Of a stretch of DNA of 64,000 bases, positions 16,363 to 25,771 are shown one piece after another; position 1 is the stretch's first letter; each line of letters opens with the position of its first letter. A program made the translations under genes and the position numbers. The stretch comes from Chroogloeocystis siderophila 5.2 s.c.1 (GTDB taxonomy: Bacteria > Cyanobacteriota > Cyanobacteriia > Cyanobacteriales > Chroococcidiopsidaceae): positions 186,001 to 250,000 of the forward strand of contig NZ_MRCC01000008.1 of the NCBI RefSeq assembly GCF_001904655.1, read 5' to 3'. Under the pieces are notes generated by a model. It saw only the letters and a list, made by a program, of their open reading frames with translations, was not told the DNA's origin and searched no databases.

Positions 16363-16492
16363 CAGCCCTTCGACTAAAGTCGGGGCTTCCTAAACAAAGT
16401 ATGCGAAAGCATACTAATGGTAAAATTTTAAACAGTAAGTCCACGGAAGTGGATTTTGTTGTTTTAACCGTGAATTCATTTGCCAAGCTACA
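16363..16492 (+). repeat. Three-hairpin dispersed element, copy 2 (best-preserved)
   Basis: Hairpin 1 GCCC-TT-CGACT-AA-AGTCG-GGGC (16366-16387), an AAACAAAGT linker, hairpin 2 AGTATGC-GAAA-GCATACT (about 16398-16415), hairpin 3 AGTCCAC-GGAA-GTGGATT (about 16437-16455), and tail GTGAATTCATTTGCCAA. It lies between the SRPBCC gene and clpB with no open reading frame of its own. Confidence 0.8.
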
Positions 16493-19106
16493 TTGTGAGT
16501 AATTCAACGGGTAAACGCTTGAATGCTAGACGTTCGTTTTCGACATCAACATAGATAGTGTCACCGTCGTTGAATTCACCGCGCAAGATCGACTTAGCAA
16601 TTTGAGTTTCTAACTCGCGCTGAATCGCCCGTTTTAGCGGTCTTGCACCAAACACAGGATCATAGCCTACTTCAGCTAAAAAGTCAAGGGCTGCATTAGA
16701 GAGTTTCAGCGACATCTTACGCTCTGCCAGCCGCTTTTCGAGTCTTTGAACTTGCAGTTGTACAATGTGGCGTAGTTCTTGTTTTTGCAGCGCATGGAAG
16801 ATGATAATTTCATCAATGCGGTTAAGAAACTCTGGACGGAAACTATTACGCATAGCATCCATCACCCGACTGCGCATCTCTTCATAACGCGAGTCATCGC
16901 CAGCAATATCTAAGATATACTGCGAACCTATGTTACTCGTCATGATAATGATCGTGTTCTTGAAGTCTACTGTATGACCTTGCGCATCGGTAACACGTCC
17001 ATCATCGAGAATTTGCAGCATGACGTTGAACACGTCAGGGTGGGCTTTTTCGATTTCATCGAAGAGAACCACAGCATAAGGACGACGGCGAATTGCTTCG
17101 GTTAACTGACCGCCTTCGTCGTAACCTACGTAACCTGGAGGCGCACCGATTAAGCGCGAAACCGCGTGTTTCTCCATGTATTCCGACATATCAATTCGTA
17201 CCATGGCTTCTTCGGTATCGAATAAATATGCTGCAAGGGCTTTAGCTAGTTCAGTTTTACCAACGCCTGTAGGACCTAGGAAGATAAAACTTGCCGTTGG
17301 ACGATTGGGATCGGCTAATCCTGCACGCGATCGCGCAATCGCATCAGCAACGGCTGTGACTGCTTCATTTTGTCCAATCACGCGCCGGTGAAGTTCATCT
17401 TCTAAATGCAACAGCTTCTCTTTTTCCGATTCCACCAACTTGCTAATTGGAATTCCTGTCCACTTCGAGATAATTTCTGCAATATCCGCTTCGGTGACTT
17501 CTTCGCGCAACAGCGATTGACCTGTCGTTTGAGTTTGCGAGAGTTTTGTTTCGGCTTCTTCTAGCTGACGATGTAAGTCTGTTAGCTTACCATACTTTAA
17601 CTCCGCAGCTTTGTTGAGGTCGTAGTCGCGTTCAGCTTGCTGAATTTCGACGTTAACGCGGTCGATTTCTTCTTTAATTGCCTGAATTTGATTGATGATA
17701 TCTTTTTCCGATTGCCATTGCGCATTCAGGGCGCGTTGTTGTTCTTTGAGATCCGCAAGTTCTTTTTCGAGTCTTTCTAATCTTTCGCGCGAAGCAGGAT
17801 CGCTTTCTTTTTGCAGCGATAGTTTCTCCATTTCGAGTTGGAGAATTTTGCGATCAATCTCATCAAGTTCTTCGGGTTTAGAGGTAATTTCCATTTTCAA
17901 CCGCGCAGCGGCTTCGTCTACCAAGTCAATCGCTTTATCGGGTAGGAAACGATCGCTAATATAACGACTTGATAATGTTGCAGCTGCAACTACCGCACTA
18001 TCAGAAATTTTTACCCCGTGGTGGACTTCATACCGTTCTTTGAGTCCACGTAGAATTGAAATTGTGTCTTCTACTGAAGGTTGATCGACATAAACTTGTT
18101 GGAAACGGCGTTCTAACGCTGCGTCTTTTTCGATGTATTTGCGATATTCATCTAATGTTGTTGCACCGATACACCGTAACTCACCGCGTGCGAGCATTGG
18201 TTTAAGCAAGTTTCCTGCGTCCATTGCGCCTTGAGTTGCACCCGCACCGACAACGGTGTGAATCTCATCGATGAAGAGAATAATCTTGCCTTGCGATTCG
18301 GTAACTTCTTTGAGGACTGCTTTGAGACGTTCCTCAAATTCACCGCGAAACTTTGCACCCGCGATTAATGCACCCATATCTAAGGCAATGAGTTTACGGT
18401 CTTTGAGCGACTGCGGAACATCACCTGCAACAATTCGTTGCGCGAGTCCTTCAGCGATCGCCGTTTTACCGACACCAGGTTCGCCAATTAAGACAGGGTT
18501 ATTTTTAGTACGGCGGGAAAGAATTTGAATTGTGCGGCGGATTTCATCATCGCGCCCAATCACTGGGTCAAGTTTACCTTGACGCGCGGCTTCGGTGAGG
18601 TCGCGCCCGTATTTTTCTAGTGATTCGTATTTACCTTCTGGATTTTGGTCAGTCACTCTCTGACTTCCTCGAACTTGTTTAATGATACCCCTGAGTTTTG
18701 CTTCGTCTAACCCGAATTCTTGAAACAGGCTTTTACCGAAGCGATCGTCGTTAGCGTAAGCTAATAATAAATGTTCAATTGAAATATATTCGTCAGCTAA
18801 TTCTTTACGATAGTTTTCGGCGCGGTCAAGGAGTGTATCTAAGCTACGTCCTAAATATACAGAACTTCCACTACCGGAAACTTTCGGTTGACGTTGAATA
18901 AATTGTTCGGCGCGATCGCGGACTTTTTGTACGTTAACTCCAGCTTTAGTTAAGATACTACTTGCTAAGCCATCTTGTTCGAGCAACGCTTTCATGAGGT
19001 GTTCGCTTTCGATCTGCTGCTGTTGTGCTGCTTTAACGATATCTGGCGTGTGGGCGATCGCTTCCCAGGCTTTTTCGGTAAACTGATTTGGATTTGTTGG
19101 TTGCAT
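16488..19106 (-). CDS. clpB: ATP-dependent disaggregase ClpB
   Basis: 872 residues from the ATG at 19106. An in-frame codon 39 bp upstream is less likely because family members start [17 protein letters not shown]. ClpB extracts proteins from aggregates together with DnaK. Domain order: N-domain repeats (about 5-150), AAA-1 with Walker A GEPGVGKT and Walker [10 protein letters not shown], a coiled-coil M domain (about 400-530), and AAA-2 with Walker A GPTGVGKT, Walker B VLFDEIEK and pore loop GYVGYDEGG, followed by the D2 small domain. Full-length and intact. Its first 25 codons and upstream region are duplicated at 23004-23194. Confidence 0.98.
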
Positions 19107-19352
19107 ATTCTGAATTCCCTCTGAGTGCTGGTGTGATTCAACCACAGAGACGCAGAGAGCACAGAGCGATTAATTATAGAAGTTTGGCTAACTGCTATCC
19201 CTACAGGTCATTGTAGAAAGAAGCTAAAGATTGTTGGATCGGTGTTCACGCATTTGGGCGTGGGTATTCCCGTTCAATAAGGTATCCTAGAATTTCTGGA
19301 TAAAAGGTTTCGACAACTTTTTCCCTACTCCTCATCATAATGGCAAAAAAAC
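19033..19352. repeat. Duplicated clpB 5' end plus upstream region, copy A
   Basis: This segment (clpB codons 1-25, the clpB upstream region with CAGAGACGCAGAGAGCACAGAG, GGCGTGGGTATTCCCGTTC and AGGTATCCTAGAATTTCTGG, and the first codons of a gene starting ATGGCAAAAAAA) reappears at 23004-24570, where an IS4-type element splits it. In copy A the plus-strand gene is a stub: nine codons, then TAG. Confidence 0.9.
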
Positions 19353-19486: not shown

Positions 19487-20693
19487 GTAGTCTGCCAAGA
19501 AAATTATGACAGGTCTAAGGAAGGATACAAGCGTTGAAATTTAACTCTGGCATCTTGAGCAACAAAACGCCAATCAATTTTAGCTTTTTGTTGATTACGT
19601 TGTTTTTCCCAAGCTTGAATCTCTGGAAGTAAAGCCTTAATAGCGGGAATACGGCGCTCCAAACATTGACAGGAGAGAACGGAAATTTCAATTTCTACCT
19701 GGTTCAACCAGCTACCATGTTTAGGAGTGTAATGGAACTCTAAAGAATCTAAAATTCTTCTAGCTTCTTGGGGTGGGAATGTTTCATACAAAGCCACAGG
19801 AGTATGAATATTTAAGTTGTCTAAAACTACCCGAATCTTAGATGCTCTTGGGAAATAAACATCTACTAAATCTTTCATCTGATGAGCAAACTCTTGTTTT
19901 GTTCTTGAGCTGGTAACTTCTATGTGTCGCCAGCCATAGTGTGGAGCATAAAAGACAAATAAATTACACGATCCTTCACGGGAGTATTGGTAATCGATTC
20001 GCGGTGGTTAGTCTGCTTCACAAGGCAAGGGTTCTATGATATCAGCTATTAATTGATAGGGTCTTTCATCAAAACAAACTACTGGCTCAAAGACGTTAAA
20101 AGATTCAGCATAGAGGTAGAGTAAGTCTTCCATTCGATAGATATATTCGGCATTGATTTGTCCAATGCACCATTCTTGTTTCAGCCAAGGTTTGATTTTG
20201 TTTTTTTCAGTGTCGTACGTACTGTTTCGTCCGAGATCCTGTCCATTAATTCAAGGCTAACTAATTGAGCGGCTAACAATTGCATTGTCCAACTCTCGCG
20301 CCCAGATGGTGGATTGCTACAGGCTGTTGCAATTAAGAAAGCTTCTGCTTGTGGATTCAGTTTTTTCTCTCTTCCTTTACGCGGACGTTCACTTAAAGCT
20401 AGTTCTACTCCTTCTTCCACATATCTTTGGCGTGTGCGGTGAACTGTTGATTCTCCTACCATTAACATCGAGGCGATCACTTCATCCTGATAACCTTGGT
20501 CTGCCAACAGCAAAATTTGCGCTCGTTTTAACACACGAGCAGAATTTTTACCTTTCTTAGTTAAATCCACTAATTGTTGATGTTCTTCTTGAGTCAGGTT
20601 AACAGTATATTTAATTGCCATAATGTGAGAAGTGTTGTTTAGACTATCTTCTTACTTAGAACAATACCTGTCAAAATGACTTTGGTAGACTAC
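19487..20693 (-). mobile_element. IS630-family insertion sequence (element a)
   Basis: About 1.2 kb flanked by TA (19485-19486 and 20694-20695), the target duplicated by IS630/Tc1 elements. The ends are imperfect inverted repeats: GTAGTCTGCCAA...TGACAGGT on the left, and GTAGTCTACCAA...TGACAGGT as the reverse complement of the right. The single cargo is the transposase gene on the minus strand. Confidence 0.9.
19504..20621 (-). pseudogene. IS630 transposase, two frames plus one TAA
   Basis: Frame A (20621-20181) is the HTH half (VLKRAQILLLADQGYQDEVI, then STVHRTRQRYVEEGVE). It reaches a run of seven A followed by C (20207-20200). A -1 slip there restores the frame into NKIKPWLKQEWCIGQ and the catalytic half: VCFDERPYQL (first Asp), VVLDNLNIHTP (second Asp) and HGSWLNQVEIE (Glu). 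The A7C site is consistent with programmed frameshifting. A TAA at 20010-20008 in the catalytic half (EAD-stop-PPRIDYQYSR) inactivates this copy. Confidence 0.88.
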
Positions 20694-20882
20694 TAGAACT
20701 CGGCTCGATGGTTACAAGAAACAGCAAAAACTATTGTGGAAATCGATTTGCTTGCTGCTATCTTGTTACAAGTTATAGGACTGTTCCTCTTCCAACTTCA
20801 ATTGTTCCTTAATTCAGCGATGCTGCAATGTTTACAACAGTCCCATGCTTCTTTCTTGTACGACTCATGAGAAGAATGTAAT

Positions 20883-21591
20883 ATGTCTTGTAAATCTCTT
20901 TTCACTACATCCAGTCTAGTTAAGCGAATCTACAAACCTTCCATAATACTAACTGCGTTACTGTCAGCTACTTTTATTTCTGCAACTAAGAGTTTCGCCG
21001 TATACTACAATGGCAGAGGAGCAACCAGTGGTCAAACAGTAGGATATAGTGGAGCACGTGCGAGGCTTTTAACGCCTAACAAACTTCTAGGTAGCGGTGA
21101 ATTTGTACGAGGTTACACCGGAGTATTTGATGATAACTCAACGGGTGTTTATATGACTGTTGGTCCGATTCAAGATTGCTTTTCTGGGCGATTTTGTACT
21201 TGGCATCCAAGCGCAAATTGGAGAACTTCAACTGGAAGTTCAAGATTTATAGATACCAGTATCAATCTCAGACCTGATAGTCTTTTCAATTAATTCTGGC
21301 TCAGGCTCTTGGGCGGCTCAAATAAGGCTAACTAGCGGAATTTATACTATTTATAATAAATTTCTTTCGCTAAGTCGTCCAATGACTACTGTGGCTGCAG
21401 GTGGTGAAGCTAATTACACTGGAACCAACGTGGGAAGACTCTCAAGTGCAAGTATAAATGAGTACCGCTTAGGAGGTACTAGCTCTATACGAGGCTACAC
21501 CTACACTCGGAGAATTAGGAATAATACAAGTGTAACTATTAGCCCAGCTTTAGGTGCTCCGTACTACGAGTGGTTTGTCACAGGTCCCTAA
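20883..21591 (+). pseudogene. Predicted secreted protein, split by a frame change
   Basis: Frame 1 (20883-21293) starts with a signal peptide (hydrophobic about 20-36, ending SFA) and then a Gly/Thr/Ser-rich beta-like domain (VYYNGRGATSGQTVGYSG, then FVRGYTGVFDDNSTGVYMTV). It stops at TAA 21291-21293. From about 21250 a +1 frame stays open to 21591 and reads INSGSGSWAAQIRLTSGIY, then LGGTSSIRGYTYTR and YYEWFVTGP. Together these would make one protein of about 235 residues. I do not recognise the family. It is either a frameshifted pseudogene or two overlapping genes. It lies in the inserted DNA between the two clpB 5' copies, upstream of another secreted protein. Confidence 0.55.
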
Positions 21592-21625
21592 TATATTACT
21601 TTAAGTTAATTAGCTAAATAAAATC

Positions 21626-22303
21626 ATGAAAAGGCTTTTAGCAATCTTTGCATTACTATCAACAGGTCTTAGTGTAGTAGTAGCTGGCTCACTTTTCTTG
21701 GAGCGTGCTTTGACTCAGTCTCAACCCGATCAACCCAACAATTCTTTTTCTCCAGAGCGTCTTGAGAAGATTAAAAGATTCAGTTCTCTGTTTCAGGCAC
21801 GCTCATTAACGAATGCTTCGCCACAAGAGGTTCAGCAAGCTGCAATAAACTATACTCTTGCCAACTCCTCCGAATTCACTGTCCGAAGTGGAGCAATTAA
21901 AACCGTTTTTACCCGTCCGATCACATTTGCTGAGTTTCCTTCTATAGGTCTTGGTGAGGTTAACTTTATTGGTGAAGAACCACCAATGATGCTCGTAGTA
22001 GTTAAAGGGGACTTCGACACTACCGACTTTGTGCCTTCTTTCTCTAATGAAAGTCAGCCTACTTTGAAGGAGCGGATTAAAGCTAAGTATATTGCTTATG
22101 TCTTTGATCTGCGTGCTGGGAGACCAACTCTCACAACAACAGCATTGACAGGAGGATACTTCCGCAAAGTTCTTAATGACTCAAGCTTGCCGGATGAGCC
22201 AAAGCTCATTAAGCCAGAGCCAGGTATGCCAGAAGCGGTGCCAGCACTGTCGAATCCGCCTGCCAAGAAATTACCATATGGTAGCATCATATCAGACAAG
22301 TAG
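21626..22303 (+). CDS. Predicted membrane-anchored or secreted protein of unknown function
   Basis: 225 residues. There is an N-terminal signal or anchor (RLLAIFALLSTGLSVVVAGS, about 3-22), a Gln/Pro/Asn-rich spacer, then a folded region (about 45-185) with alternating beta and helical patterns, and a Pro-rich tail. No catalytic motif, no Cys. It starts 34 bp after the end of the upstream secreted-protein remnant on the same strand, so the two may be one operon. Family not recognised. It lies in the DNA inserted between the duplicated clpB ends, which suggests recent acquisition. Confidence 0.6.
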   Translation: MKRLLAIFALLSTGLSVVVAGSLFLERALTQSQPDQPNNSFSPERLEKIKRFSSLFQARSLTNASPQEVQQAAINYTLANSSEFTVRSGAIKTVFTRPITFAEFPSIGLGEVNFIGEEPPMMLVVVKGDFDTTDFVPSFSNESQPTLKERIKAKYIAYVFDLRAGRPTLTTTALTGGYFRKVLNDSSLPDEPKLIKPEPGMPEAVPALSNPPAKKLPYGSIISDK

Positions 22304-22528
22304 TTTCTTGGGATATTGGCGTCAGGTAAGCGATATCATCCTCTCAATTGCAACGTAATAACGTCCAAATGGTTGAATGAAAGCTATTTGGACGTATTTC
22401 TAGTACTTAGTTTATAAACGGGTAGTTCTGGCTATCACTATTTAAAACAAATAACCCTATTGCTTTACTACAAGTTCTTGTAACAAAACCCTAACCATTG
22501 CTCATGCGTCTATCTTATCTATAGAGAA

Positions 22529-22966
22529 TTATCCTTTCACTTTGTGAAGGACTTGATCTCGGACTTGCGAAAGCTCTATTCCTAAGCTTTTAAGTACTCT
22601 AACTGCTACGCTTTCTTTTTCTTGGATGAGAGCTAGCAACAGGTGCTCAGTACTAATGAAGTTGCATCCAAGTTGCAAAGCTTCTTTAGCAGATAGCTCT
22701 AGAACACGCATGACTTTTGGTGTAAATTCAAAAATTTCATCGATTGTAACTCCAGGACTAAAGCCAGTAATCTTTTCAACCTCTATCCGAGTTTCGGTAA
22801 GGTTTACACCTAGTTGGTTTAATACTTCGGTAGTAGTGCCACTTCCCTGTCCAATCAGGGCTAGGAGTATGTGCTCAGTTCCAATCCAAGTCCGCCCTAA
22901 ACGGCGTGCCTCTTCCTCAGCTAGCATAATCACCCTACAAGCTTCTTCCGTAAAACGTTCATACAT
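22529..22966 (-). CDS. Stand-alone ClpC-type N-domain protein (ClpT-like)
   Basis: 145 residues consisting only of the double Clp-N repeat. Repeat 1: YERFTEEACRVIMLAEEEAR...IGTEHILLALIGQGSG. Repeat 2: FTPKVMRVLELSAKEALQLG...ISTEHLLLALIQEKES. The sequence matches the N-terminus of ClpC rather than ClpB. There is no AAA module, so it cannot be an unfoldase. Free N-domains are known in plants and algae (ClpT) and cyanobacteria as accessory subunits of Clp protease. A role in substrate delivery or core assembly is an inference. It lies 3 bp downstream of a chimeric ORF made from the duplicated clpB start. Confidence 0.88.
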   Translation of the reverse strand: MYERFTEEACRVIMLAEEEARRLGRTWIGTEHILLALIGQGSGTTTEVLNQLGVNLTETRIEVEKITGFSPGVTIDEIFEFTPKVMRVLELSAKEALQLGCNFISTEHLLLALIQEKESVAVRVLKSLGIELSQVRDQVLHKVKG

Positions 22967-22969
22967 AGC

Positions 22970-23077
22970 TTATTCACTATCATCTAAAAAACAGAAGTCT
23001 TCCTTAACGATATCTGGCGTGTGGGCGATCGCTTCCCAGGCTTTTTCGGTAAACTGATTTGGATTTGTTGGTTGCAT
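22970..23077 (-). CDS. 35-residue chimeric ORF: first 25 residues of ClpB plus 10 new residues
   Basis: The duplicated clpB start codon (23077) is intact, and the first 25 codons match clpB at the protein level. The frame then crosses the junction at about 23003 and adds EDFCFLDDSE before TAA (22972-22970). Only 3 bp separate this stop from the ATG of the ClpC N-domain gene, an arrangement that would allow translational coupling. Whether the peptide itself matters is unknown. It may act only as a translated leader. Confidence 0.5.
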   Translation of the reverse strand: MQPTNPNQFTEKAWEAIAHTPDIVKEDFCFLDDSE

Positions 23078-23194
23078 ATTCTGAATTCCCTCTGAGTACT
23101 AGTGTGAGTTCTCAATCACAGAGACGCAGAGAGCACAGAGTGGTAAATTGTAAAAAAGGCTAACTGCTATCCCTACAAGTCATTGTAGAAAGAA
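23004..23194. repeat. Duplicated clpB 5' end plus upstream region, copy B (left part)
   Basis: Near-identical to 19033-19217 through the first 25 clpB codons and the start region, then diverging moderately upstream (CAGAGACGCAGAGAGCACAGAG and GGCTAACTGCTATCCCTACA are conserved). An IS4-type element interrupts it at 23195. The copy resumes at about 24381. Confidence 0.9.
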
Positions 23195-24380
23195 CTTCAG
23201 ATCTTGCACCTGATGACTTGAATTTCAAAACCCTGTAATTTTGCTAATGGTTGTAAGCGTTGGACTTCTAGCAGCAGAAGTAGTACAACCAATTGTGGTA
23301 GGAAAACCTCAAGTGCTAGTTTTGCTGCCGCTCCCCAATCCGGTAAATCTGGTGAAGCAGTAGACAAGTACGCCCAGTGTGCCAACAAATAAGCAATCAG
23401 CGATAGTACTAACCAACGATAAATACCTTTTAAAGTTGCCTGACCAAAACGATGTAACCCAAAACGATGTTTGGCACTCTTGAACCAACCTTCTATCTGC
23501 CACCTACGCTTCCCCCACCAAGTAATGGTATGACTCTTAAGTGCCTTGGTAGACAAAACAAATCGTTTTTCTAGCTTGCCATGATCGCGTTTGAGATAGT
23601 ACCAAGAGATTGTTACGGGAAACTTTAACCCCACTAGTCGCACCTATTGTCCTCGTTTGTGTAATTGTCTCAAGCTGCGCCCATCTTGTAGCTGACGGTC
23701 ATACCGGACTCCAGCAATGGCAGGAAATTTTAGTTTGCGAATTGCCGTTAAAAACTCGATGCTGCCAAAAGCAGTATCAACGAGAATTAAAACTTGAAAG
23801 TGTTTAGTGAGTACTTTGGGTAAGCCGCGCACTAGCTTTAATCCTAATTGTGCAGGTGAAGGTGTGTTTTTGCCGCGGTAGACGCGAAAACTCCAAGGAA
23901 CACGCCACTGCCCCACGACTAAATACGCTACCACTAAGTGTAATCCGCGCTTGCCATGATACACTCGTACCAGTCCATTGAGTCCGCTAAACTTACCGCG
24001 TTTTTCGATTGTGGTGAGAGCGATAATTACCTGTAGTGTCGGTCTGCGCCCTACTCTTGGCTGGGATAAGCTTTGCTGGATGACAATTCGGCGACTTTCC
24101 CGAATCAAACCACGAGTTGACCAAGGATAGACGTTGAGAAACCGACTCAAGGCGCTGGCAGATTTCGCTTGACACTGCTGCGGCAGAGGATGCCCCTGCG
24201 CTTGTAGAAATAAACCCAATATTGCTTGCAGGCTATCTCGTTGGTAGTGACTCGGCATCAAACCCAGCAGAGTGTAAACTAACCCTTGGGCGTGGGCTCT
24301 TGATGGTTGACATCGTTCTTGCGTTTAATCTGTTTCACGCCCTTTTCTCCCATCTTTTGAGACTTGGTGCAAGTTCTGAG
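23195..24380 (-). mobile_element. IS4-type insertion sequence
   Basis: About 1.19 kb. The ends are inverted repeats (CTTCAGATCTTGCACC on the left; CTCAGAACTTGCACC as the reverse complement of the right). A 5-bp direct repeat AAGAA flanks it (23190-23194 and 24381-24385), a plausible target duplication. It sits in the clpB-upstream duplicate, so it inserted after the duplication or in the parent of copy B. Confidence 0.75.
23197..24261 (-). pseudogene. IS4-type transposase interrupted by TAG
   Basis: The minus strand reads PSHYQRDSLQAILGLFLQAQ, then STRGLIRESRRIVIQQ, VLILVDTAFGSIEFLTAIRK (second catalytic Asp region) and GVRYDRQLQDGR to a TAG at 23646-23644. The same frame then continues with FVLSTKALKSHTITWWGKRR and WQIEGWFKSAKHRFGLHRFG (the YREK-like region of DDE transposases) to 23197. 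CAG to TAG would account for the break. The extreme N-terminus is also unclear because the frame upstream of 24261 lacks a good start. Confidence 0.85.
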
Positions 24381-24821
24381 AAGAACCCAACTTGTGCTGG
24401 GATCGGTGTTTACGCATTTGGGCGTGGGTATTCCCGTTCAATAAGGTATCCTAGAATTTCTGGTTGCAATAGTCTATTTTCTACATGGTGCAGAATCAGA
24501 ATAAAAGAAAGGTTTCGACTATTTTTTCCTCACCCCTCACCCCTCACCCCTCCTCTAGTGGCTAAAAAGCAGAAGTTTCCTTATTTAGTTGGCTCAAAGT
24601 GGACTGCACAGCAAAAAGTCGATGGCTGGCGTCATTTTGTGGTAGTTAATCGCAAAAATGAGGGTAAGTGGCTATTCGCGGAGATGGTTGCAGCGTGTGA
24701 CCCTAATGTACGATTTTGGCTGAATGCTAAATTACTCAAAGACCGCTCGCAGTGGCAAGCTGGCTGGCAATCCTTAAAAGATCTTGCTGAACTTAACGAA
24801 CTTGCGACGGGAGAGTATTGA
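24381..24821. repeat. Duplicated region, copy B (right part) leading into the Trp-rich gene
   Basis: From about 24400 the sequence again matches copy A (GGCGTGGGTATTCCCGTTCA and AGGTATCCTAGAATTTCTGG) up to the start codon of the Trp-rich gene at 24558. Copy B thus has a truncated clpB and a full Trp-rich gene, while copy A has the reverse. Confidence 0.85.
24558..24821 (+). CDS. TIGR02450-type tryptophan-rich protein
   Basis: 87 residues from a GTG at 24558. The parallel start in copy A is ATGGCAAAAAAA, which supports this position. The body FPYLVGSKWTAQQKVDGWRHF and NVRFWLNAKLLKDRSQWQAGW has six tryptophans in the pattern of the small conserved family TIGR02450, common in cyanobacteria. No function is established. 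It was divergent from clpB in the ancestral order, as inferred from the two duplicated copies. Confidence 0.82.
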   Translation: MAKKQKFPYLVGSKWTAQQKVDGWRHFVVVNRKNEGKWLFAEMVAACDPNVRFWLNAKLLKDRSQWQAGWQSLKDLAELNELATGEY

Positions 24822-25029: not shown

Positions 25030-25771
25030 ATGAAGCGATCGCAACGCAAACATCGTGTTTGCACTCACGAAGGAGTACTAAATCGCATTACCAGTCGTAT
25101 TCGCAAATCTTTAGAATTGCAAGAGATTTTGACAACGACGGTTGAGGAAGTACGTGCGTTTCTCAATACAGAACGAGTTAAAATCTATCGATTTCATCCT
25201 GATGGCAGTGGTGAAGTTATTGCAGAATCAATTCATGGTAGGCGGCTTCCTTCGCTACTAGGGCTACATTTCCCTGCGGATGATATACCACCTCAAGCAC
25301 GCGAGATGTTTGTAAAAACCCGTCAACGTGTCATTGTAGATGTGATAGCCCGATGTCAAATTCACAATTAGCGTCCTTCAAGAGTTACAGAATATGGGCG
25401 TTTCGATTGCGATGGATGACTTTGGAACTGGTTACTCGTCGCTGGCGACACTTCGGCGTTTTCCGCTACATACGCTCAAGGTGGCGCGCGAGTTTGTTAA
25501 CGATATCACAACGGATCAAAAAGATGCAGCGATTATTAAATCAATCGTCGCGCTCGGACATGGGTTGGAGTTAAATGTCATTGCGGAAGGTGTCGAAACC
25601 CACGAACAGTTGAAGTTTTTACATGCAGTTAAATGCGACGGAATGCAAGGTTACTTGTTCAGTAAACCTTTAGCTGCGGATGCTGTAGTTCAATTTTGTC
25701 AGCAACACTATAATATCTTTGCGCAGAAATTGGAGTTTACAGCAACTCAGTGTCGCGATCTGCAAAACTAA
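25030..25771 (+). pseudogene. GAF...EAL signalling protein with internal deletion
   Basis: The first 105 codons (from ATG 25030) are the start of a phytochrome-like GAF domain (VLNRITSRIRKSLELQEILT, then FLNTERVKIYRFHPDGSGEV and LPSLLGLHFPADDIP). Near 25346-25370 the sequence jumps, out of frame, into the last ~130 residues of an EAL domain (VLQELQNMGVSIAMDDFGTG, DFGTGYSSLATLRRFPLHTL, then NVIAEGVETHEQLKFL). The missing middle would have held the rest of GAF, probably GGDEF, and the EAL catalytic start. Non-functional for c-di-GMP turnover. Confidence 0.88.

What the first reader, a model, noticed from the sequence alone, without database searches (positions are those of the whole stretch)
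22529..23194. Duplicated clpB promoter/start placed directly before a stand-alone ClpC N-domain gene
Seen: the clpB upstream region and first 25 codons are repeated here. The frame runs on for 10 further residues and stops 3 bp before the ATG of a gene encoding only a double Clp-N repeat of ClpC type. The order suggests capture of clpB (heat-shock type) expression signals by the N-domain gene, with stop-restart coupling. Known: free Clp-N proteins (ClpT) act with the Clp protease core. Inference: a hybrid arrangement that puts a Clp adaptor under clpB control.
Basis: partly seen in the sequence, partly recalled or inferred. Interest (0 to 1): 0.72.

Follow-up and report, generated by a model that had tools for sequence, protein, structure and literature searches.

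The report
ClpC N-domain gene behind clpB promoter
In two sister cyanobacteria a small gene encoding only the substrate-docking part of a protein-degrading machine sits behind a second copy of the start region of a heat-shock chaperone gene, and in the genome studied here a jumping gene has since split that borrowed promoter.

Summary
The clpB 5' region and first 25 codons are repeated before a stand-alone ClpC-type double Clp_N gene (ClpN, 22966-22529). Of three genomes held for the genus, G002 has ClpN in the same place and G001 has the layout without it. ClpN thus entered between a Trp-rich gene and clpB in the ancestor of G000 and G002, flanked by duplicated clpB 5' ends. Many clpB genes of the order carry a bipartite signature, CCGATC-N21/22-TACAAT (21 of 30 upstream regions). 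G002 ClpN has it intact; in the window the insertion lies inside its spacer, and the empty site has N22. So promoter capture is supported as an ancestral event, but the stop-restart leader is absent in G002 and the borrowed promoter is split here. ClpN keeps the ClpC N-domain fold, is under purifying selection, and has lost two residues that anchor this domain to the rest of ClpC. I infer a free decoy or buffer for ClpC N-domain ligands; a decaying relic remains nearly as likely.

The parts
22529..22966 (-). ClpN: stand-alone ClpC-type double Clp_N gene, 145 aa
   Evidence: Pfam Clp_N; 61% to ClpC N-domains; AF2 model mean pLDDT 90, TM 0.93-0.96 to the best eight PDB matches, all ClpC/ClpC1 N-domains
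22970..23077 (-). leader ORF: 25 clpB codons + 10 residues + TAA, ends 3 bp before the ClpN ATG; absent in G002
22999..23189 (-). proximal part of the duplicated clpB 5' region (copy B), including the TACAAT at 23187-23182
23182..23187 (-). TACAAT element of the clpB-type signature in copy B
23190..23195 (.). 6-bp target duplication (GTTCTT on the - strand), proximal side
23196..24380 (-). IS4/IS701-like insertion sequence, 1,185 bp, one place in the genome, transposase frame (24261-23197) with one in-frame stop
24381..24386 (.). 6-bp target duplication, distal side
24401..24406 (-). CCGATC element of the clpB-type signature in copy B, cut off from TACAAT by the insertion
24387..24540 (-). distal part of the duplicated clpB upstream region (copy B)
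   Evidence: D2 and D5
24558..24821 (+). Trp-rich TIGR02450/DUF2389 gene, the ancestral divergent neighbour of clpB
19210..19242 (-). intact clpB signature CCGATC-N21-TACAAT
16488..19106 (-). clpB (872 aa from the ATG at 19106)
19504..22303 (.). insert between ClpN and clpB seen in the window and not in G002: IS630-like transposase pieces (19504-20621; family name recalled, Pfam DDE_3 and HTH hits) and two + strand genes without Pfam match (20883-21293, 21626-22303)

Best explanation
In the common ancestor of the window species and G002, a diverged, free-standing copy of the ClpC N-domain (ClpN) entered between the Trp-rich gene and clpB, with duplication of the clpB 5' region (promoter, leader and first 25 codons). 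The resident promoter stayed next to the Trp-rich gene and now precedes ClpN; clpB uses the second copy. Each gene thus had its own clpB-type promoter, CCGATC-N21/22-TACAAT. G002 later lost the leader and the 25 codons, so that the intact promoter leads straight into ClpN. The window lineage kept the 25-codon leader ORF, and an IS4/IS701-like element then inserted into the promoter spacer. Shown: sequences, order, the signature and its link to clpB, the IS split, purifying selection, predicted fold. Inferred: the order of events, that the signature is a promoter, that it is stress-inducible as clpB1 is in Synechocystis, and the function. My functional guess is that free ClpN binds ClpC N-domain ligands (adaptors, unfolded or tagged substrates) without being able to dock on the rest of ClpC, so it acts as a decoy or buffer co-induced with the ClpB disaggregase. 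That functional step alone I hold at about 0.3.
For: Layout in the three same-genus genomes: G001 has Trp-rich gene | promoter | clpB and no ClpN; G002 has Trp-rich gene | promoter | ClpN | promoter | clpB; window as described. The ancestral divergent Trp-rich/clpB pair is also seen in G004, G010 and G014. In 388 genomes of the order, 365 have a match at E <= 1e-46, and in the table only G000 and G002 have two (ClpC plus ClpN) (limits in the full report). In the leader, of 15 columns where both clpB copies agree against the ClpN copy, the ClpN copy is ancestral in 9, the clpB copies in 2, and 4 are unclear. ClpN and clpB have similar dS between G000 and G002 (0.217 and 0.234). Signature: strict in 21 of 30 clpB upstreams, none in any of 200 shuffled sets (the pattern was read from these same sequences); in 148 genomes 35 sites against 4 for the reversed control, in 32 genomes; of the 31 of these 35 sites whose surroundings I examined, 23 lie about 65-300 bp before a clpB start on the same strand, 1 before G002 ClpN, 7 elsewhere, and 13 of the 23 are in genomes outside the 30 used to find the pattern. 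The empty site rebuilt from the flanks has N22. ClpN dN/dS 0.30, below 1 (Fisher p 1.5e-4 on rounded counts). ClpC anchor residues K85 and R9 (PMC12583610, passages) are M/I and E in ClpN (R9 is K in cyanobacterial ClpC), while the T7, E106 and R122 positions are kept. Of 43 columns invariant in the seven non-ClpN rows of A4, ClpN keeps 32.
Against: No expression data exist here. The two copies have not evolved apart cleanly: in the distal block (1 of 63 differences) and in the codons (0 of 74) the G000 copies are nearest each other, and G002 ClpN shares the AAACTTC state with the clpB copies, so conversion or later exchange must be added. dN/dS of ClpN is about 17 times that of clpB for the same pair (0.297 against 0.017), and G002 has lost the first of the two ClpC Glu residues (E31G), so decay is possible. 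dS of three nearby genes is lower (0.03-0.16), so the match of ClpN and clpB dS is only weak support for vertical descent. The signature is not a sigma-70 consensus: the scan did not report it. It is absent, as an exact match, from 116 of 148 genomes and from 9 of 30 clpB upstreams. The origin of ClpN is unknown. Only three genomes of the genus are held. A second TACAAT (23152-23147) remains in copy B and could be used.
Confidence: 0.6

Rival explanations
1. The 25-codon leader in the window arose in this lineage alone: the ancestor had only the promoter duplicated, as in G002, and gene conversion from clpB later pasted leader and codons before ClpN.
For: The codons of copy B carry the window's own clpB bases at the two sites where clpB of G000 and G002 differ. 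G002 lacks leader and codons.
Against: The leader of copy B keeps states shared with outgroup clpB genes and absent from both clpB copies of G000 and G002 (9 columns against 2), which a recent copy from the window's clpB would not give. The alignment shows no extended similarity beyond the codon-25 junction that could end a conversion tract.
Confidence: 0.2
2. ClpN is a relic on its way out: once duplicated, it has no role, and the promoter split in the window shows the loss is tolerated.
For: Insertion in the promoter spacer; dN/dS far above clpB; E31G in G002; orthologue seen in only G000 and G002 in the table.
Against: Open frame intact in both species; dN/dS 0.30 differs from 1; the modelled fold is complete; 32 of 43 columns invariant in the other rows are kept in both.
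Confidence: 0.3
3. ClpN works like mycobacterial ClpC2: a sponge that protects ClpC from natural products that bind its N-domain, here placed under stress control.
For: ClpC2 is a partial ClpC1 homologue that binds cyclomarin, protects the cell, and is about twofold heat-induced (PMC10030653: abstract, passages and section 12).
Against: ClpN has lost K85, which the cyclic peptides contact according to PMC12583610 (passages), and has Y at position 2, where ClpC has F. It has no extra domain.
Confidence: 0.12
4. The leader ORF and stop-restart junction are a selected translational coupling device.
For: TAA, GCT, ATG geometry; the sequence just before the clpB start is kept before the leader ORF.
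Against: Absent in G002, where AGGGA lies 7 bases before the ClpN ATG; upstream promoter split in the window.
Confidence: 0.1

Closest known systems
ClpC N-terminal domain (PF02861 x2; e.g. M. tuberculosis ClpC1 NTD 3wdb, A. thaliana ClpC1 NTD 5gui)
   Same: Fold (TM 0.95 and 0.94), 51-61% identity, T7, E106 and R122 positions
   Different: No AAA+ modules follow; K85 and R9 anchor positions changed
Mycobacterial ClpC2 (PMC10030653; 8b9o)
   Same: ClpC N-domain homologue without ATPase modules; ClpC2 is heat-induced about twofold and shares binding partners with ClpC1
   Different: ClpC2 has an extra N-terminal dimerisation domain and represses its own promoter; 26% identity and TM 0.75 in the model match; different promoter history
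Plastid ClpT2 (4y0c)
   Same: Free double Clp_N fold (TM 0.84-0.90)
   Different: 23-24% identity; [quoted passage not shown]
ArsR-Clp_N fusion in the same genome (L004:1033-1890)
   Same: ClpC-type double Clp_N without AAA+; 47% to ClpN
   Different: Has an ArsR-type winged helix in front; on another contig, not near clpB in L004

Membership tests
Clp_N (PF02861) proteins | two Clp_N repeats above the Pfam cut-off | tested here: met
   106.4 bits, cut-off 20.7, two stretches
ClpC unfoldase | two AAA+ modules and ClpP-docking loop after the N-domain | tested here: not met
   ORF ends at 145 aa
ClpT | plastid-type ClpT sequence | tested here: not met
   best matches are ClpC N-domains; ClpT2 at 23-24% identity
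ClpT | association with the ClpP/R ring | not testable with these tools
   needs biochemistry
Mycobacterial ClpC2 | extra N-terminal dimerisation domain | tested here: not met
   ClpN is only the 145-aa double repeat
Mycobacterial ClpC2 | DNA binding and autorepression | not testable with these tools
   needs binding assays
clpB-type promoter signature of this cyanobacterial order (defined here) | CCGATC-N21/22-TACAAT before the gene | tested here: not met
   window: split by a 1,185-bp insertion; met in sister G002
IS4/IS701 insertion sequence | DDE transposase, inverted ends, target duplication | tested here: met
   DDE_Tnp_1 over its cut-off; IS701/IS4 models hit below their full-length cut-offs; 15-base ends differing at 2 positions and a 6-bp duplication

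The most novel reading that the evidence does not exclude
Duplication of a clpB promoter created a proteostasis gene pair in which the disaggregase ClpB and a free, ATPase-less ClpC N-domain are induced together. The free domain, having lost docking residues, competes with ClpC for adaptors and damaged substrates and so tips triage from degradation towards refolding under stress. In the window genome a transposon has since cut that link, giving a natural promoter mutant for comparison.
Probability: 0.22. Interest if true: 0.72.

Novelty: new variant of a known kind. Interest (0 to 1): 0.5.

Why it matters
Free Clp N-domains are known, but here the birth of one can be placed between closely related species and tied to the duplication of a specific chaperone promoter. 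The comparison also exposes a conserved clpB promoter signature in this cyanobacterial order, for which the paper searches I made gave no description (listings), and a natural insertion mutant of its second copy. This makes the question of what a free ClpC N-domain does to the balance of degradation and refolding directly testable with two sister species.

Tried and rejected
Origin of ClpN from clpB: rejected, since it is about 24% identical to the ClpB N-domain against 61% to ClpC. Origin from a mobile element: no relative in viral contigs. Plasmid hits are all below 60% identity. The genome-contig scan gave three distant hits (26-40% identity) and no orthologue. DNA comparison with clpC loci gave only coding similarity (best 69%, a clpC of G037) and no shared flank that would name a donor. 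Consensus sigma-70 scan of 22480-24620: one site, on the - strand within the insertion (23673-23646), none between 22967 and 23003, fewer than the shuffle mean of 2.6. Near clpB two sites, the - strand one at 19498-19470, upstream of the signature. The third clpB of this genome (contig C7) has no such signature in the stretches held. The only other exact signature-like site in this genome (contig C11) has a 23-base spacer and no clpB in the locus. A 24-base leader repeat also occurs once elsewhere in the genome, before an unrelated gene, so it is not specific to clpB. In one search the block labelled 'clpB codons 1-24' was wrongly bounded (it began at an upstream ATGCAACC); the counts used are those. 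In one search the 30 upstream regions include one from a 63%-identical paralogue (G017) and one partial gene (G028); they are not independent, as many are from related genera, and the pattern was chosen after seeing them.

Papers. PMC10030653: outline with abstract, passages and section 12. PMC12583610, PMC7966870, PMC6789579, PMC5381637, PMC8400943: passages only. Others: search listings only. A stand-alone ClpC N-domain in cyanobacteria was searched for and no description was seen in those listings; most subscription papers are not held. That clpB1 is induced by heat and other stresses is stated for Synechocystis (PMC6789579, passages).

Full report
Observation. The window contains two copies of the clpB 5' region. 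Copy A precedes clpB (ATG at 19106, - strand). Copy B precedes a 145-aa ORF at 22966-22529 that consists of two Clp_N repeats of ClpC type. The 74 bases from the start codon are identical in the two copies. After codon 25 copy B reads on for ten residues, stops, and three bases later the Clp_N gene (here ClpN) begins. A 134-nt upstream query finds only these two copies in the genome, copy B in two pieces.

What was missed. The two pieces of copy B are separated by an IS4/IS701-like insertion at 23196-24380. It is 1,185 bp and found at one place in the genome. Its 15-base inverted ends differ at two positions, it has a 6-bp target duplication, and its transposase frame is interrupted by one in-frame stop. 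Beyond it lie the rest of the clpB upstream region and a Trp-rich TIGR02450 gene.

History. Three genomes of the genus are held. G001 has the Trp-rich gene and clpB divergently arranged with no ClpN between them. The same pair is seen in G004, G010 and G014 of a neighbouring genus. G002 has Trp-rich gene, promoter, ClpN, promoter, clpB. In 388 genomes of the order 365 have a match at E <= 1e-46, and in the table only G000 and G002 have two, ClpC and ClpN. Limits of that search: at most ten candidates per genome were scored, three genomes without a match and part of the matches are not listed, and a few draft genomes (for example G351, G354) show their single ClpC-like match in a short open frame, which I did not follow up. 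dS between G000 and G002 is similar for ClpN and clpB (0.217, 0.234), while three nearby genes have 0.03-0.16. In the leader, copy B of the window keeps outgroup states at 9 of 15 differing columns, against 2 where clpB keeps them and 4 unclear; several are neighbours and may be single events. So the resident clpB promoter most likely now heads ClpN, and clpB uses the second copy. Against a clean picture, the window's copies are nearest each other in the distal block and in the codons, and G002 ClpN shares a leader block with the clpB copies, so exchange between copies must have followed.

Promoter. The clpB upstream regions of 30 genomes show CCGATC, 21 or 22 bases, TACAAT in 21 of 30, and in none of any of 200 shuffled sets; the pattern was chosen on these sequences. 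An independent look: in 148 genomes of the order the pattern with GA added occurs at 35 sites in 32 genomes, against 4 for the reversed control, and G002 is the only genome with two at this locus. The other 116 genomes have no exact match. I examined the surroundings of 31 of the 35 sites: 23 lie about 65-300 bases before clpB on the same strand, 1 before G002 ClpN and 7 elsewhere; 13 of the 23 are in genomes outside the first 30. In the window, clpB has the signature intact (19242-19210), while in copy B CCGATC (24406-24401) and TACAAT (23187-23182) are split by the insertion. The empty site has a 22-base spacer, so the borrowed signature was intact until the insertion. That it is a promoter is inferred from conservation, position and spacing; it does not fit the sigma-70 consensus scan. 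A second TACAAT remains at 23152-23147.

The protein. The AlphaFold2 model has mean pLDDT 90. Its best eight PDB matches are ClpC1 N-domains at TM 0.93-0.96; ClpT2 chains reach 0.84-0.90 with 23-24% identity, and a mycobacterial ClpC2 domain 0.75. dN/dS between the two species is 0.30, below 1 (p 1.5e-4 on rounded counts) but far above clpB at 0.017; nearby genes give 0.04-0.41. In ClpC, residues K85 and R9 anchor the N-domain to the first ATPase domain and to the neighbouring middle domain, and mutating either activates the enzyme (PMC12583610, passages). Both ClpN proteins have M or I for K85 and E for R9 (K in cyanobacterial ClpC), while the positions of T7, E106 and R122 are kept; E32 is kept in the window and is G in G002. 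This is what one expects of a domain freed from an ATPase body, and it makes docking on ClpC in trans less likely than binding of ClpC ligands.

Interpretation. A free ClpC N-domain came under a duplicated clpB promoter in a recent ancestor. In Synechocystis clpB1 is induced by heat and other stresses (PMC6789579, passages). Mycobacterial ClpC2, a partial ClpC1 homologue, is a sponge for an antibiotic, is about twofold heat-induced, and slows casein degradation by ClpC1 when in excess (PMC10030653). By analogy ClpN may buffer ClpC ligands when ClpB is needed. That is inference. A relic in decay is nearly as likely. The leader ORF is best read as a scar of the duplication, since G002 does without it.

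Noticed in passing
L004:1033-1890 (genome contig C4, outside the window): A 285-aa protein with an ArsR-type winged helix fused to a ClpC-type double Clp_N. Matches in open frames of similar length occur in several relatives, not checked there for the winged helix. It recalls mycobacterial ClpC2, a ClpC N-domain homologue that is also a repressor.
   Followed up: partly
19210-19242 and clpB upstream regions of relatives: A clpB-linked promoter signature CCGATC-N21/22-TACAAT conserved across many genera of the order.
   Followed up: yes
genome contig C7:237289-238032 (outside the window): An extra clpB-like gene, 81% identical to the window clpB over its first 247 residues, not seen at that level in the same-genus genomes G001 and G002; it lacks the promoter signature in the stretches held.
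   Followed up: partly
19504-22303: Transposase pieces (DDE_3 and HTH hits) and two + strand genes without Pfam match, between ClpN and clpB in the window but not in G002.
   Followed up: no
19143-19166 and 23117-23140: A 24-base leader repeat (CTCTGTGCTCTCTGCGTCTCTGTG) also found once elsewhere in the genome, on contig C1 before an unrelated gene.
   Followed up: partly
25030-25771: By eye, two short ORFs match the beginning and end of an 875-887-aa protein (GGDEF/EAL-type, label recalled) that is whole in G001 and G002, so this gene looks largely deleted in the window.
   Followed up: no
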